Part shown: positions 4,094 through 15,061 of the stretch, one piece after another | Layout of the letters: every line of letters starts with the position of its first letter | How positions within the stretch are numbered: position 1 is the first letter of the stretch | IMG/VR virus record: IMGVR_UViG_3300044695_000919 | Location: 1-24,832 of that record | Source: a virus | Reading direction: 5' to 3' (one strand) | DNA: 24,832 bases | Notes under the pieces: model-generated | Told to the model about the DNA's origin: nothing | Database searches by the model: none | The model's input: only the letters and a program-made list of their open reading frames with translations | Made by a program: the position numbers and the translations under genes

Positions 4094-4387
4094 CTAGCTT
4101 TGTGAATCAGTGGAAACCCTTAGAAGCGTCCAATCAAGCAATTCTTGTTGTGTTATCCCGTAGTGCTTAACAAAGCCTTTGGTTCCCAAGCCATGTATGC
4201 CAGTGTTTCCCCTGTGATGTTCAGCGCAAAGTGGAATAAGTGTCTTGTAGTCACCTTTTCCCCATCCACCTGCTCTAAGGTGGTGGAGTTCCACTCCTGC
4301 TGGATCGTGTGGCCCGTGTAGGTGATAGCACAGCGCACAGCCCAACTCAGCAACAGCTTGCTTGTGGGCTTTCTCAGCTTTGGTCAA
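4094..4387 (-). CDS. Ref-like (RecA-dependent nuclease family) HNH protein
   Basis: I place the start at TTG 4387, just inside the end of ninB; the frame is open further upstream, but only as a shadow of ninB. The 97-residue protein reads MTKAEKAHKQAVAELGCALC, then VELHHLRAGGWGKGDYKTLI, PLCAEHHRGNTGIHGLGTKG and FVKHYGITQQELLDW. The GCALC, HHLR and LCAEHH ligands with a terminal YG.T..ELL segment match the nuclease core of phage P1 Ref, which cuts DNA at RecA-made D-loops. The family call is from memory of the motif order. Placement next to ninB parallels the nin region of lambdoid phages. Confidence 0.72.
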   Translation of the reverse strand: MTKAEKAHKQAVAELGCALCYHLHGPHDPAGVELHHLRAGGWGKGDYKTLIPLCAEHHRGNTGIHGLGTKGFVKHYGITQQELLDWTLLRVSTDSQS

Positions 4388-4784
4388 AGGACACCCCGTT
4401 TTCAGCGCCCCAAGCAAACAGCCACTCAATAAACTGGCTTGACTCGTCTTTTTTAAATTTGCGAGTTTGCAAGCCAAGCTGAACAATTCCAGTGCCATCA
4501 AGACTTGGAACCAGCTTGCCAGTGCTAATGCCAACTTCTTTAGCGAACTGCCAAACAAGAAACCGCTTCCAATCCTCTTGTGACCACTTAGCACCAAGGT
4601 GGCTTGCTTGCTTTGCGATCTGTCCGATGATGGCGTGATACATCTCCTCCTGGTCGCGGCTTTTAGATTCTTTCTCAATCGTCAGCACTAGCTTGTTCCC
4701 TGCCATTAGGTAAGGCTTGGCTTTCTGCCAAATGTCTTTCAGGACTGTGTGGCCCTGTTGAGCGTTATGCAGCGTGATTTTCAT
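4374..4784 (-). CDS. ninB: NinB-family recombination protein
   Basis: A 136-residue protein, near the 146 of lambda NinB (Orf). Family features: an N-terminal strand region, then LVLTIEKESKSRDQEEMYHA, IIGQIAKQASHLGAKWSQED, WKRFLVWQF and a C-terminal segment SSQFIEWLFAWGAENGV. Lambda Orf works with the Red system: it binds single-stranded DNA-binding protein and helps load the annealing protein. The partner annealing protein here would be the ERF protein encoded at 9343. AAAGGT precedes the ATG, which lies 20 nt inside the end of the transporter gene. Confidence 0.88.
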   Translation of the reverse strand: MKITLHNAQQGHTVLKDIWQKAKPYLMAGNKLVLTIEKESKSRDQEEMYHAIIGQIAKQASHLGAKWSQEDWKRFLVWQFAKEVGISTGKLVPSLDGTGIVQLGLQTRKFKKDESSQFIEWLFAWGAENGVSFDQS

Positions 4785-5250
4785 TGCTAACCTTTGAAAT
4801 CACATAAGCCCAAACAGCACCACCAGCAACTTTTGCAACAAACTGCATGGCAACAATTTGAGGCATCAAAACACCAAAAGCCAATGTTGGGAAAACTAAA
4901 CTGTCAACAGCAGCACCAGCAATGTTGCTTCCATTTGCACGCTTGATCCAAGTGCCTGTAATTTTGGCAAACACAGCCCAATCAACCACTGATGCGGCAG
5001 TGAATGACACAGCAGAAGCAATGGCAATCATTCCAGCAGCAGGGTTTAACAAGTAAGTCAGCAAACCAGTTCCGACAATCAAGCCGCCCATCTGCCATGC
5101 TTTTAGTTTCTGGTGCAACAAGTCTCGCAAAGCCAAGTCAAGGCCAATAAACAAAAATGAATTGATAGGTGACACCCAAGGGCCAAAATGTGAGATTGAC
5201 AAGTTTGCGGCAGTCATTGCCAGTGCGTAGATTGCGATTGCTGTTTTCAT
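4765..5250 (-). CDS. yhhQ: VUT/YhhQ-type queuosine-precursor transporter
   Basis: A 161-residue membrane protein with about six hydrophobic segments (roughly residues 4-20, 28-44, 53-70, 72-92, 112-130, 133-153). The stretch HFGPWVSPINSFLFIGLDLA followed by LRDLLHQ is the hallmark of the VUT (DUF165/YhhQ) family; E. coli YhhQ imports preQ0/preQ1. The phage form is shorter than YhhQ. The start is ATG 5250, with AGGAAA upstream and ATGA overlap with the DpdA-like gene; the frame extends to 5283 but only within that gene. Coupling to a transglycosylase suggests import of a 7-deazaguanine base for phage DNA. Confidence 0.82.
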   Translation of the reverse strand: MKTAIAIYALAMTAANLSISHFGPWVSPINSFLFIGLDLALRDLLHQKLKAWQMGGLIVGTGLLTYLLNPAAGMIAIASAVSFTAASVVDWAVFAKITGTWIKRANGSNIAGAAVDSLVFPTLAFGVLMPQIVAMQFVAKVAGGAVWAYVISKVSNENHAA

Positions 5251-5978
5251 AAAAGCGTTTCCTGAATTGGTTGTTTGATCCATTTTTGTGAGGAATTATG
5301 AGATTCGATTCTTTGTCTCATAACCATTGCTCTTGCTTCTTTTGTTGGTGGTGGGTAGTTGCCGCTTTTCCAGTTGTTATCAATTCCTATGTTTCGACCA
5401 ATGTTTGTGCTGTCAGCAGACGCAAAAGGTAACTTGGTAAAAACTTCAAGGTCAAGCATCCTTAAGCCGTGAAGTTTGCAAATTGGCGAACCATCAGGGC
5501 AAACAACATTCATTGCTTCTGCCATCCGACCCCACCATTTTGAGTTTCCAATCTCAGCAAACTCACCAGATGAGCCAATGCAGACCCTATGAAACTCTCT
5601 TGCAAGCCAAGAAAGCCGACTCATTGATTCGTGCATATGCCATACAGGTGCGCCAAAGAACTTTCCTAAAGGCCACGATCTAACCAAAGCGTTGTTGTCT
5701 TCTTCAGTGCCATCAATTACGTCAGGGATAACAGCAAAGTCACAGTTAGGCATTTTCTTGCAAGCAAACGCCCATTCGTAAAAGTCAGACCAATTAGTCA
5801 CTGGGTTTCCACTTTTCCAGGCACTGAAAGCGCCATTGTCAACAGCAAAAGATTGACAGACTTCAGCAGCAACGCCAAGTTGATCTGGATGATGGAAAGA
5901 AACAAAGGCATGACCAGCTTGCACAGCCGACACAGCAGCAGTTGCTGGAGTTATTGGCAACCCATGATAATGAATCAT
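5247..5978 (-). CDS. dpdA: DpdA-like DNA guanine transglycosylase
   Basis: A 243-residue TGT-superfamily protein. Motifs in order: FAVDNGAFSAW (44-54), matching the DSGGF substrate-binding loop of tRNA-guanine transglycosylase; FAVIPDVIDG (81-90); PVWHMHES (111-118); VCIGSSGEFA (132-141); CKLHGLRML (167-175); and FASADSTNIGRN (185-196), where Asp189 is in the place of the TGT nucleophile. DpdA enzymes replace guanine in DNA with a 7-deazaguanine such as preQ0. The protein is shorter than bacterial DpdA, and no Cys-rich TGT zinc site is seen. GGAGG precedes the ATG, which overlaps the rusA stop. Alternative: a tRNA-targeting TGT relative, less likely in a phage beside a transporter. Confidence 0.82.
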   Translation of the reverse strand: MIHYHGLPITPATAAVSAVQAGHAFVSFHHPDQLGVAAEVCQSFAVDNGAFSAWKSGNPVTNWSDFYEWAFACKKMPNCDFAVIPDVIDGTEEDNNALVRSWPLGKFFGAPVWHMHESMSRLSWLAREFHRVCIGSSGEFAEIGNSKWWGRMAEAMNVVCPDGSPICKLHGLRMLDLEVFTKLPFASADSTNIGRNIGIDNNWKSGNYPPPTKEARAMVMRQRIESHNSSQKWIKQPIQETLL

Positions 5979-6391
5979 TCAAGCTCCTCCCTCACGCAAA
6001 CATGGACGCTTGCAATAGTTTCATATCGCTTTGTAACGTGAAGGCTAACCACCTGAACATCATCTTTGTAAACAACCCCGTTCATTGCATCAAGGAAGGC
6101 TTTTGCCACGTTATCCAAATCGGGTTTCTTTGGACGCTCTAAACGCTTTAAACAGGCTTCGTTGCGCTTTTTTGAATAACTGGCGGGGATGGCATGGTTG
6201 ATGTAAATATAAACCGCCACAGGCGTTTCTAGTGGCTCTGTTGGCCCCATAGCTGACAAGGCTTGTGCTTTTATCTGAGATTCGTAGTCAGAAGTCTTTT
6301 TTGGCGTGTAGGTGCGGCCCATCTTTGTGAACCTTGGGCGTTGCTTGCCAACAGGGTTGCCCTCTACGCTGAAAATCAATTGAAACGTCAT
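5975..6391 (-). CDS. rusA: RusA-family Holliday junction resolvase
   Basis: A 138-residue protein with the RusA layout. The N-terminus reads VEGNPVGKQRPRFTKMGRTY, and the catalytic block RPKKPDLDNVAKAFLDAMNG is followed by VVYKDDVQV. Asp91, Asp93 and Asp110/111 correspond to the three acidic metal ligands of E. coli RusA, which dimerises and cuts four-way junctions symmetrically. In phages it resolves replication and recombination branches before packaging. Start and stop both lie in ATGA overlaps with neighbours. Confidence 0.93.
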   Translation of the reverse strand: MTFQLIFSVEGNPVGKQRPRFTKMGRTYTPKKTSDYESQIKAQALSAMGPTEPLETPVAVYIYINHAIPASYSKKRNEACLKRLERPKKPDLDNVAKAFLDAMNGVVYKDDVQVVSLHVTKRYETIASVHVCVREELE

Positions 6392-9194: not shown

Positions 9195-9346
9195 AAACAG
9201 CGTACCTCACACGGGTACGCAGCCTGTACTGCGTTCCAGGTGTACCAACACACATTCAGCGCCACAACATGAGGGAGTGGATCAAATCAATCCGCTTTCT
9301 TGGTGACAAGTGGCTTTTGGCTAAACAAGTTGGGAGAACACAATGA
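9191..9346 (+). CDS. 51-aa conserved phage protein
   Basis: Begins MKTAYLTRVRSLYCVPGVPT and continues HIQRHNMREWIKSIRFLGDK WLLAK. It is basic, and the ending 'W...IRFLGDKWLLA' is a pattern I recall from Burkholderiales phages upstream of recombination genes. Both ends lie in ATGA overlaps, which firmly places it between the 53-aa gene and the ERF gene. Function unknown. Confidence 0.75.
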   Translation: MKTAYLTRVRSLYCVPGVPTHIQRHNMREWIKSIRFLGDKWLLAKQVGRTQ

Positions 9347-9951
9347 GCATTTACAAAAAACTAAGTGATGCAAGAGAGCATTTCCATGAGTTACAGCTCA
9401 GGAAAACTGGTCATAACAAGTTTGCTGGTTACAAGTATTTTGAACTTGGCGACTTTCTGATACCAGCGTTAAGTGTTTTGAAAATGTACGGCATTGTTTC
9501 TGTGATCTCGTTTGGCAAAGAGATTGCAACAATGAAACTGATTGACATTGACAAGCCAGATGATTTCATTGAAATCACTTCTCCAATGTCCTCTGCGGCT
9601 CTTAAAGGAGCGCATGAGATTCAAAACCTTGGTGCGGTGCAAACTTACACAAGAAGATACTTGTGGGTTGCAGCCCTAGAAATAGTTGAGCATGACGCTA
9701 TTGACTCAGCGCCAGCAAAAGAAAAAGTTATCATCACTCCCTCTCAGGGTATTGCAGACAACATTCCCGCAGAGGAAATGCAGTACCTCCAAGAATTAGC
9801 AATCGAGTTGGTTGCTAACGTAGCTGAAGGCCAACCAAAACAAGCACTTGAAAGGCTTGATGCGGAGAAGCTAGAGGCAGATCAAAAAGTAGCCTTGTGG
9901 TCATTGCTAGACAGCAAGACTCGGGCTGCAATCAAAAAAGCAAAGGAATGA
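9343..9951 (+). CDS. erf: ERF-family single-strand annealing protein
   Basis: A 202-residue protein. The N-terminal domain (about residues 1-120) carries the ERF features: KLSDAREHFHELQLRKTGHN, KFAGYKYFELGDFLIPAL and the signature GAVQTYTRRYLWVAALEI (97-114). ERF proteins form rings on single-stranded DNA and anneal complementary strands during phage recombination and genome circularisation. The C-terminal part is acidic, variable and helical. It starts by ATGA overlap and lies directly upstream of an SSB-like gene, the usual pairing. NinB at 4374 is a likely partner. Confidence 0.92.
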   Translation: MSIYKKLSDAREHFHELQLRKTGHNKFAGYKYFELGDFLIPALSVLKMYGIVSVISFGKEIATMKLIDIDKPDDFIEITSPMSSAALKGAHEIQNLGAVQTYTRRYLWVAALEIVEHDAIDSAPAKEKVIITPSQGIADNIPAEEMQYLQELAIELVANVAEGQPKQALERLDAEKLEADQKVALWSLLDSKTRAAIKKAKE

Positions 9952-10639: not shown

Positions 10640-10678
10640 CCATTGTATAAATGGTATAATTAGTCATTTATACAATGG
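10640..10678 (+). promoter_or_regulatory. 14-bp perfect inverted repeat enclosing a TATAAT box
   Basis: CCATTGTATAAATG (10640-10653) and its exact reverse complement (10665-10678) flank an 11-nt centre GTATAATTAGT with a perfect -10 box TATAAT (10655-10660). TTACGC (10633-10638) lies 16 nt ahead as a weak -35. The right arm ends next to the GGGGGA ribosome site of the HNH-AP2 gene. The arms could be a repressor operator across the promoter, or fold in read-through mRNA and hide the ribosome site. Confidence 0.7.
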
Positions 10679-10686
10679 GGGATGCA

Positions 10687-11181
10687 ATGATACTTGAACA
10701 AGAATGTTTGCGAAAACTTACTTATGACCCATTGACGGGTCTTTTTACTTGGAACCTTGATGGAACAAGAGGCGTAAAAGCTGGAGATATTGCTGGATCA
10801 AAAATGCCTAATGGCTACATCATTCTTTGTGTTTCTGGGAAAAAAATTTTTGCTCATAGAGTTGCTTGGTTTTTTGTTCATGGGGCATTTCCATATGGCC
10901 ACATTGACCACATCAACAGAAACAAAGCAGACAACAAAATTTCAAACTTGAGGTTGGCTAGCCCAGAGCAAAACGCCCAGAATAGACTTAAAAATGTCAA
11001 AAATACTTCTGGGTACAAAGGAGTTACATGGCATAAAAGAGACAAAAGATGGCAAGCCGCAATAACAATACGTGGAAAAGTTTTGCATCTTGGTTATCAC
11101 GCAAAAGTAGAAGATGCTTACGCTGCTTATGTTGAAGCATCAAAAAAATATCAAACACATTCAATTTTTAAAGAAAGTTAA
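10687..11181 (+). CDS. HNH-AP2 homing-type endonuclease, copy 1
   Basis: A 164-residue protein from ATG 10687, chosen because GGGGGA lies 4-9 nt upstream and it gives the family opening MILEQECLRKLTYDPLTGLF. The HNH core spans residues about 57-98 (AHRVAW, then GHIDHINRNKADNKISNLRL). An AP2-type DNA-binding domain follows (108-150: TSGYKGVTWHKRDKRWQAAI, then GKVLHLGYH and EDAYAAY). Such free-standing genes are selfish homing nucleases that spread between phages. It is more AT-rich to the eye than its neighbours and appears to have its own promoter, both signs of insertion. A paralogue lies at 14576-15061. Confidence 0.9.
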   Translation: MILEQECLRKLTYDPLTGLFTWNLDGTRGVKAGDIAGSKMPNGYIILCVSGKKIFAHRVAWFFVHGAFPYGHIDHINRNKADNKISNLRLASPEQNAQNRLKNVKNTSGYKGVTWHKRDKRWQAAITIRGKVLHLGYHAKVEDAYAAYVEASKKYQTHSIFKES

Positions 11182-14575: not shown

Positions 14576-15061
14576 TTAAACTTTGGCGTATGCGCCGTGA
14601 TAAAGAGATCGTGCTTCAGCAGAGACAAGTCCAGCCAACTCAAGGTCTTTGAAGTAGCCAATAATCTTGCTCTTGCCATCCTTCATTACTCGGACGTACC
14701 AAGCCTTGCTTGCTTTGTGCCAAGTTACACCGGGATAGCCGCTTGTGTTGCTTGCCAGTGCGCCACGGTTGCATTGGTTCTCGCTGCGAGTTGCAGGGCG
14801 TAGGTTTTCAATGCGGTTATCCGCACGGTCGCCATTGATGTGGTCAACCTCTGGAGGCAGATAGCCGTAGTGCAACATAAAAATAAGGCGGTGCGCTTTT
14901 TGCGGCTTGCCTTTCCATGTGATGTGTCGATAGCCCGTCTTGTGAATTGAGCCAGCAGGTTTGTTGAGCAGATGCTGTTTGTTTGGATGGCTAATGCCTT
15001 TCCAATACAAAAGACCGTCTCGATATTCAAAACAGTCAGCAATGGCTTGTTGAGTAATCAT
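14576..15061 (-). CDS. HNH-AP2 homing-type endonuclease, copy 2
   Basis: A 161-residue paralogue of the gene at 10687. The HNH core (57-98) has [11 protein letters not shown] and [20 protein letters not shown]; the AP2-type domain (106-150) has [20 protein letters not shown]. It begins by ATGA overlap with the stop of the tail-fibre gene and has no visible Shine-Dalgarno site, so it depends on fibre translation. It separates the fibre from the DUF7936-like gene, which are usually adjacent, so it has probably inserted here. Confidence 0.9.

What the first reader, a model, noticed from the sequence alone, without database searches (positions are those of the whole stretch)
4765..5978. Two-gene, salvage-only 7-deazaguanine DNA modification module
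Seen: a DpdA-like transglycosylase frame (DNGAF, SADSTN, HMHES and GSSGEF motifs) coupled by ATGA to a six-span VUT/YhhQ-type protein, inside the replication operon between rusA and ninB. Known: DpdA enzymes exchange guanine for preQ0-type bases in phage DNA; YhhQ imports preQ0/preQ1. Inference: the phage imports the base from host or lake water and edits its own DNA to evade restriction, with no biosynthesis genes in the window. The small DpdA (243 aa) and short transporter may be a reduced form of the system.
Basis: partly seen in the sequence, partly recalled or inferred. Interest (0 to 1): 0.75.

Follow-up and report, generated by a model that had tools for sequence, protein, structure and literature searches.

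The report
Phage DNA-base swapper with base importer
This phage carries two overlapping genes that together probably import a modified guanine-like base (preQ0 or preQ1) and swap it into DNA without making it, a recurring import-only form of a known phage DNA-disguise system, predicted from sequence and not yet tested chemically.

Summary
A 243-aa ORF (5247-5978, -) overlaps by ATGA a 161-aa Vut_1/YhhQ-type membrane protein (4765-5250, -; the 172-aa ORF is an upstream over-call), inside rusA-dpdA-vut-ninB. The first protein falls in the same family (phrog_887) as the experimentally tested DpdAs of phages 9g and CAjan. It shares their Asp/His motif positions, and its model is an 8-strand barrel whose nearest solved folds are mostly guanine transglycosylases.

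New evidence is comparative. All 62 IMG/VR loci found with the transporter have a dpdA directly beside it. Across 93 thinned DpdAs the transporter was gained or lost at least 14-20 times. In sister phages its slot is taken by queD, never both. A third partner, phrog_37496 (unknown function), is predicted to fold like archaeosine synthase QueF-L. FolE, QueD, QueE (radical-SAM) and QueC are undetected in the window, in its longer relatives and in six complete isolate phages with the pair.

Best reading: a salvage-only 7-deazaguanine DNA-modification module. Salvage by DpdA-only phages, and phage preQ0 transporters, are already published as ideas, so this is a new variant of a known kind. Product, modification level and restriction protection are untested; DpdA-only relatives show only trace modification.

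The parts
5247..5978 (-). dpdA-type DNA guanine transglycosylase gene (243 aa)
   Evidence: phrog_887 E 3.6e-71, the family that also takes in 9g and CAjan DpdA; AlphaFold2 model pLDDT 85, pTM 0.84, 8-strand barrel; best VIA-align rows are TGTs, Z up to 15.5; strong Shine-Dalgarno ggagg
4765..5250 (-). vut: Vut_1/YhhQ-type six-span membrane protein, probable preQ0/preQ1 importer (161 aa from the ATGA start; the 172-aa ORF begins at 5283)
   Evidence: PF02592 39.4 bits over cut-off 27.2; phrog_4899 E 1e-39; six hydrophobic segments, AGGA upstream of the 5250 start
5247..5250 (-). ATGA overlap: stop of dpdA and start of vut (translational coupling)
   Evidence: read from sequence; the same 4-base overlap recurs in relatives
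5838..5840 (-). codon of Asp47 in DNGAF, aligned with 9g DpdA Asp72 (LDSGAF)
   Evidence: invariant in the 25-sequence alignment; aligned to 9g, CAjan and 7-11
5712..5723 (-). codons 86-89 (DVID), Asp86 and Asp89 invariant; Asp89 aligns with 9g Asp115 (VLDG)
5469..5471 (-). codon of His170 (KLHGLRML), aligned with the conserved 9g His196 that DpdA2 lacks
   Evidence: invariant; aligned; role of His196 per PMC6884629
5412..5414 (-). codon of Asp189 in SADSTN, aligned with 9g Asp215 (SCDSS), candidate nucleophile by analogy with TGT
   Evidence: nucleophile role inferred from TGT family knowledge
5975..6391 (-). rusA Holliday-junction resolvase directly upstream, overlapping dpdA (operon context)
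   Evidence: PF05866 E 2.2e-32
4374..4784 (-). ninB recombination gene directly downstream, overlapping vut (operon context)
   Evidence: PF05772 E 8.3e-21

Best explanation
A two-gene, import-only 7-deazaguanine DNA-modification module. The Vut_1/YhhQ-type protein raises the infected cell's supply of a free 7-deazaguanine base (preQ0 most likely, preQ1 possible), and the DpdA-type transglycosylase exchanges that base for guanine in DNA, presumably the phage's own and at particular motifs, after replication. Because the phage makes no precursor, output depends on what the host makes or takes up. Shown: the genes, their translational coupling, family membership by sequence and fold, purifying selection, recurrent linkage, and undetected biosynthesis genes. 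Inferred: substrate of the importer, DNA (not tRNA) as target, identity and level of the product, and protection from restriction or other defences.
For: phrog_887 E 3.6e-71, the same family as 9g and CAjan DpdA at 2e-98 and 8e-96; the profile built from window relatives recovers 7-11 (2.0e-51), CAjan (2.1e-16) and 9g (1.8e-12) DpdA in whole genomes, with D47, D89, H170 and D189 aligned to 9g D72, D115, H196 and D215. The literature shows 9g DpdA puts preQ0 in plasmid DNA and CAjan loses dPreQ0 without dpdA (PMC6884629). The model is an 8-strand barrel and 48 of the top 50 solved entries are TGT-fold enzymes, Z 14.2-15.5. Vut_1 is above the curated cut-off. All 62 IMG/VR transporter loci have a dpdA ORF or fragment beside it; 117 of 219 distinct DpdAs have the transporter adjacent, 102 of them overlapping or within 20 nt, in both gene orders, with at least 20 gains or losses on the DpdA tree, 14 forced by starred branches. 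In sister phages queD (PF01242, 1.5e-24) sits in the same coupled slot; transporter and QueD never occur together (0 of 219; 0 of 22 records with the pair). QueC, PTPS/QueD, FolE, QueF and radical-SAM families are undetected in the window; in the complete isolate phages PEAT2, AB3P2, Opt-719, RCIP0319, Lg3 and Phc, which all carry the pair, the same searches are negative. A third recurrent partner, phrog_37496, folds like archaeosine synthase QueF-L (E 1.7e-4, TM 0.85; Z 12.2, 1.5 A over 81 residues). dN/dS about 0.05-0.1.
Against: No chemistry exists for any phage with this exact pair. The closest DpdA-only phages carry only traces (7-11 about 0.02% of G as dADG; MED16 about 0.13% of G, no restriction-enzyme protection; Orion none). 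Vut_1 members can carry other substrates such as queuine. Profile-profile comparison with bacterial TGT gave nothing (shallow alignments), Foldseek alone was not significant, and two aldolase barrels score within 1 Z of the TGTs. The window is a fragment. Seven isolate records have the transporter without DpdA, beside a DNA-methyltransferase-like gene. The V/QueD exclusion rests on few independent QueD origins (5 changes).
Confidence: 0.72

Rival explanations
1. The transglycosylase acts on host tRNA (or another RNA) and the transporter feeds tRNA queuosine synthesis, tuning translation during infection rather than modifying DNA.
For: Fold is TGT-like and cannot separate DNA from RNA substrates. 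Measured DpdA-only relatives show very low DNA modification (PMC6884629, PMC8306585).
Against: Sequence family is that of 9g and CAjan DpdA, shown to act on DNA (PMC6884629). The tRNA-TGT zinc motif CxCxxC is absent. No QueA/QueG/QueH were found in phages by Hutinet 2019.
Confidence: 0.1
2. The pair does modify DNA but not for restriction evasion: low-level, site-specific dPreQ0/dADG (or dPreQ1) marks that regulate packaging, gene expression or block another defence or a competing phage.
For: Trace levels in 7-11 and MED16, and no protection of MED16 DNA from the tested restriction enzymes (PMC8306585). Replication/recombination operon position.
Against: Those two phages lack the transporter as far as reported, so they may be starved of base; CAjan, with biosynthesis, reaches 32% of G (PMC6884629).
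Confidence: 0.25
3. The Vut_1 protein imports something else (queuine, a vitamin or a nucleobase), and its adjacency to dpdA reflects shared position in a mobile 'moron' slot, not one pathway.
For: Vut_1 is annotated only as a putative vitamin transporter; seven mEp021-like isolate records carry it without DpdA.
Against: 62 of 62 IMG/VR loci and 14 of 21 isolate records have DpdA adjacent, in both orders and with different outer neighbours. The slot is shared with QueD and a QueF-L-like fold, both of the 7-deazaguanine pathway.
Confidence: 0.1
4. The DpdA homologue is no longer active and is kept for another role.
For: No direct activity data for this clade.
Against: All candidate catalytic residues invariant; dN/dS about 0.05.
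Confidence: 0.04

Closest known systems
DpdA of Enterobacteria phage 9g and Escherichia phage CAjan (Hutinet 2019)
   Same: Same PHROG family, alignable Asp/His motifs, post-replicative base exchange expected
   Different: 9g and CAjan encode FolE/QueD/QueE and QueC or Gat-QueC; their DpdA is about 306-317 aa; the window protein is 243 aa and accompanied by a transporter only
Hutinet 2019 group 3: phages with DpdA and no biosynthesis genes (Salmonella phage 7-11), and Pantoea phage MED16
   Same: DpdA only, about 246 aa, same family; host or environment proposed as base source
   Different: No coupled transporter reported for 7-11 or MED16; Hutinet saw 'no correlation' of YhhQ with any phage group, whereas here it is directly coupled to this DpdA clade
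preQ0/preQ1 transporters of Pantoea phage Vid5 and Enterobacter phage EC151/Seuratviruses
   Same: Vut_1/COG1738 transporter encoded beside a DpdA-type gene, salvage proposed (PMC6266253, PMC8310023)
   Different: There the transporter supplements an encoded preQ0 pathway; here no pathway gene is detected
E. coli YhhQ (COG1738), preQ0/preQ1 importer
   Same: Vut_1 domain, six hydrophobic segments
   Different: Phage form is about 161 aa; short 155-161 aa chromosomal homologues also exist in Pseudomonas
Archaeosine synthase QueF-L (PDB 5JYX, 5K0P)
   Same: Predicted T-fold of the neighbouring phrog_37496 protein in related phages matches at TM 0.85, Z 12.2, with an invariant Cys
   Different: Only about 80 aa; the residue seven after the Cys is Ile, where QueF has its catalytic Asp; not present in the window

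Membership tests
phage DpdA (9g-type DpdA, phrog_887) | Significant sequence homology to characterised DpdA | tested here: met
   Profile of relatives finds CAjan 2.1e-16 and 9g 1.8e-12 in whole genomes; shared phrog_887
phage DpdA (9g-type DpdA, phrog_887) | TGT-like (beta/alpha)8 barrel | tested here: met
   Eight strands, pLDDT 85; TGT rows lead, Z 15.5. Two aldolases within 1 Z, so fold alone is not specific
phage DpdA (9g-type DpdA, phrog_887) | Conserved Asp pair and the His (9g His196) that DpdA2 lacks | tested here: met
   D47, D89, D189, H170 aligned to 9g D72, D115, D215, H196
phage DpdA (9g-type DpdA, phrog_887) | Inserts a 7-deazaguanine in DNA | not testable with these tools
   Needs nucleoside mass spectrometry or an in vitro assay
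DpdA2 (Vibrio phage nt-1 type) | Homology to nt-1 DpdA2 | tested here: inconclusive
   The A1 profile gave no match in the nt-1 genome even at E 10, and the His that DpdA2 lacks is present here; no DpdA2 profile was tested
tRNA-guanine transglycosylase (PF01702) | Pfam TGT match and CxCxxC zinc motif | tested here: not met
   No Pfam match at E<1; no CxCxxC
Vut_1 / YhhQ (PF02592, COG1738) | Vut_1 domain above curated cut-off | tested here: met
   39.4 bits vs 27.2
Vut_1 / YhhQ (PF02592, COG1738) | NCBI 'queuosine precursor transporter' model TIGR00697 | tested here: not met
   14.8 bits, cut-off 50.95, so it is Vut_1 but not a certified member of that model
Vut_1 / YhhQ (PF02592, COG1738) | About six membrane spans | tested here: met
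   Six hydrophobic segments by Kyte-Doolittle; no dedicated topology program was run
Vut_1 / YhhQ (PF02592, COG1738) | Transports preQ0/preQ1 | not testable with these tools
   Needs an uptake or complementation assay
salvage-only (group 3) 7-deazaguanine phage | No FolE, QueD, QueE, QueC in the genome | tested here: met
   Undetected in the window, in 14 related contigs up to 36 kb with the pair, and in six complete isolate phages with the pair. The window itself is a fragment
QueF-L (for the neighbouring phrog_37496, not in the window) | QueF fold and catalytic Cys/Asp | tested here: inconclusive
   Fold and Cys met; the Asp seven after the Cys is not conserved; no Pfam QueF match

The most novel reading that the evidence does not exclude
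A large family of mostly uncultured phages uses interchangeable cassettes built on one small DpdA: plus importer (salvage), plus QueD (boost one host pathway step), plus a QueF-L-like T-fold protein (convert preQ0 to archaeosine), or importer with the T-fold protein. Phages would thus switch between importing, boosting and customising the DNA base by swapping one gene, and the import form would make phage restriction-resistance depend on host or environmental preQ0/preQ1.
Probability: 0.4. Interest if true: 0.72.

Novelty: new variant of a known kind. Interest (0 to 1): 0.55.

Why it matters
About half of the distinct DpdA genes sampled here (117 of 219, from searches seeded on chosen members) carry a coupled importer instead of biosynthesis genes. 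If the importer feeds DpdA, the DNA chemistry of these phages depends on a nutrient, so resistance to host restriction could rise or fall with preQ0/preQ1 supply. It offers a direct explanation for the puzzling trace modification in DpdA-only phages (no importer, too little base) and a cheap test in E. coli Tunaviruses that carry the pair. The partner swap also assigns a pathway to two PHROG families now listed as unknown (4899 and 37496).

Tried and rejected
PDB sequence search with the DpdA and with the transporter: no hits at E<1. hhalign of the DpdA alignment against six host TGTs: no alignment, attributed to shallow alignments; not used as evidence either way. Foldseek against PDB: no E<0.001; TrpA, pyruvate kinase and aldolase barrels rank with archaeosine TGT, so the TGT call rests on VIA-align order plus sequence homology to characterised DpdAs, not on Foldseek. 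PADLOC: no match for the window proteins. The idea that the window DpdA is a reduced enzyme was dropped, since about 240-275 aa is typical of its clade. The idea that the cluster-9 small protein is a Pfam QueF was not met by sequence; only the fold supports it. The mEp021 gene beside its transporter was considered as an alternative base-inserting transferase; it matched only DUF6378, so this was not pursued. One alignment call failed on a coordinate slip and was repeated.

Full report
WHAT IS THERE. On the minus strand the window holds rusA (5975-6391), dpdA (5247-5978), vut (4765-5250) and ninB (4374-4784), each overlapping the next. The dpdA stop and vut start share ATGA. The listed 172-aa vut ORF begins at 5283, but the ATGA start (161 aa) is preferred: many relatives begin there, and only it has a Shine-Dalgarno-like AGGA. 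Both genes are under strong purifying selection against relatives 86-93% identical in DpdA (dN/dS about 0.05-0.1).

THE TRANSGLYCOSYLASE. No Pfam family matches at E<1, but phrog_887 'queuine tRNA-ribosyltransferase' matches at 3.6e-71. PHROG names are annotations, so this was checked. The DpdAs of phages 9g and CAjan, which are tested experimentally, are in the same PHROG (2e-98, 8e-96). A profile of 25 relatives (A1) run over whole phage genomes recovers the DpdA of 7-11 (2.0e-51), CAjan (2.1e-16) and 9g (1.8e-12), and nothing in nt-1, whose enzyme is DpdA2. D47, D89, H170 and D189 align with 9g D72, D115, H196 and D215; His196 is the residue that Hutinet et al. note as missing from DpdA2 (PMC6884629). 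The AlphaFold2 model (pLDDT 85, pTM 0.84) has eight strands. In the VIA-align list 48 of 50 entries are TGT-fold enzymes (Cap10 and archaeosine TGT Z 15.5; Zymomonas TGT to 14.9), but two aldolases lie at 14.7 and 14.2, so the fold alone is not decisive. The tRNA-TGT zinc motif CxCxxC is absent.

THE TRANSPORTER. Vut_1 (PF02592) matches at 39.4 bits over a cut-off of 27.2. It does not reach the NCBI queuosine-precursor-transporter model (14.8 of 50.95 bits). Six hydrophobic segments are seen. The phage profile also finds short chromosomal Vut_1 proteins in Pseudomonas and a YhhQ-sized one in Achromobacter. That it imports preQ0 or preQ1 is inferred from the YhhQ family and from linkage, not shown.

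LINKAGE. A scan of IMG/VR with the transporter alone gave 62 loci; every one has a DpdA ORF or fragment directly beside it. In 219 distinct DpdAs from five searches, 117 have the transporter next door, 102 of them overlapping or within 20 nt; most are dpdA-vut, 12 are vut-dpdA. These counts depend on which seeds were searched and are not a census. Among 21 isolate phage records with the transporter, the pair is adjacent in those inspected (PEAT2, AB3P2, Tbat1_6, Opt-719, ECO111 5-P, RCIP0319, Lg3, Phc, LHE71 and, by near-identity, their sister records; 14 records), and absent in seven mEp021-like records, where the transporter sits between DUF6378 and a DNA-methyltransferase-like gene. On a tree of 93 thinned DpdAs the label 'V' needs at least 20 changes, 14 forced by starred branches. 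The pair therefore re-forms or breaks repeatedly, which argues for function rather than inheritance alone.

PARTNER SWAP. In related phages without the transporter, the same overlapping slot holds QueD (PF01242 1.5e-24). Transporter and QueD never co-occur (0 of 219 DpdAs; 0.001 by hypergeometric on 93 rows, ignoring phylogeny; QueD has only about five changes on the tree, so this is suggestive). QueD is found in 7 of 9 long transporter-less IMG/VR contigs and in none of the 22 records with the pair. A third partner, phrog_37496 (unknown function), lies directly after, before, or between dpdA and vut in 36 distinct loci. Its model (pLDDT 97) matches archaeosine synthase QueF-L best: E 1.7e-4, TM 0.85; Z 12.2, 1.5 A over 81 residues, ahead of GTP cyclohydrolase I at 11.0. 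The Cys is invariant but the Asp seven residues later in QueF is Ile here, so activity is uncertain. All partners with an assignable pathway belong to 7-deazaguanine metabolism, which is the best evidence that the transporter carries such a base. Neither QueD nor phrog_37496 is in the window.

NO BIOSYNTHESIS. QueC, PTPS/QueD, FolE, QueF and radical-SAM (QueE) families are undetected in the window. The window is a linear fragment, so the same searches were made in 14 related contigs with the pair (up to 36 kb) and in complete isolates with the pair (PEAT2, AB3P2, Opt-719, RCIP0319, Lg3, Phc): all negative. Two sub-threshold QueC matches occur, one in a contig with the pair (G021), the other in G007. 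The controls rang in 9-14 of 14 known genomes for the four pathway families (8-11 for QueF).

MECHANISM. Most likely: vut raises free preQ0 (or preQ1) in the infected cell; DpdA exchanges it for guanine in DNA, as 9g and CAjan DpdA do. With no phrog_37496 or amidotransferase detected, the expected product is dPreQ0, possibly drifting to dADG as in 7-11 and MED16, or dPreQ1 if preQ1 is taken up. Protection from restriction is plausible but not implied: DpdA-only MED16 had about 0.13% of G modified and was cut by the enzymes tested (PMC8306585); 7-11 about 0.02%; Orion none (PMC6884629). A useful prediction is that phages with the importer will show higher levels when base is supplied.

NOVELTY. 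Published before: DpdA-only phages that may use host or exogenous base, and YhhQ homologues in some phages 'with no correlation' to group (PMC6884629); phage preQ0/preQ1 transporters in Vid5 and EC151/Seuratviruses together with biosynthesis genes (PMC6266253, PMC8310023). Not found in the searched open-access library: a coupled dpdA-vut module without biosynthesis, its alternation with QueD, or the QueF-L-like partner. Subscription papers are not covered; from memory, a 2023 study (Cui et al., Nucleic Acids Res.) extended the DpdA subfamilies and was not available to check. Hence 'new variant of a known kind'.

Noticed in passing
L063:4699-4983, L082:1706-1987, L161:5756-6004, L154:3178-3501 and 42 others: phrog_37496 (unknown function, about 80 aa) is a recurrent dpdA neighbour and is predicted to share the fold of archaeosine synthase QueF-L, with an invariant Cys but without QueF's Asp.
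   Followed up: partly
L034, L036, L047, L050, L053, L072, L077 (directly after dpdA): Single queD genes coupled to dpdA in phages where FolE and QueC are undetected (and radical-SAM QueE where searched), as if boosting one host step.
   Followed up: partly
L141:2960-4696 and L148 (mEp021-like coliphages): The same transporter family without DpdA, between a DUF6378 gene and a DNA-methyltransferase-like gene (phrog_757); possibly another base-modification route.
   Followed up: partly
L308, L315: In the BTP1-like enterobacterial DpdA clade, which normally has no partner, two contigs carry the transporter directly upstream of dpdA.
   Followed up: no
OR850331.1 (Staphylococcus phage SA 1298 Kay, 1719 bases): Its DpdA match has the same identity and score as the Salmonella phage copies, so the short record may be mislabelled or contaminated.
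   Followed up: no
window 10675-11181 and 14576-15061: Two separate ORFs on opposite strands carry the same-looking HNH-type endonuclease motif ([54 protein letters not shown]), like paralogous homing endonucleases.
   Followed up: no
window 9343-9951: An Erf-type ssDNA annealing gene (PF04404 2e-08) lies on the + strand, opposite to the rusA-dpdA-vut-ninB operon, suggesting divergent early transcription.
   Followed up: no
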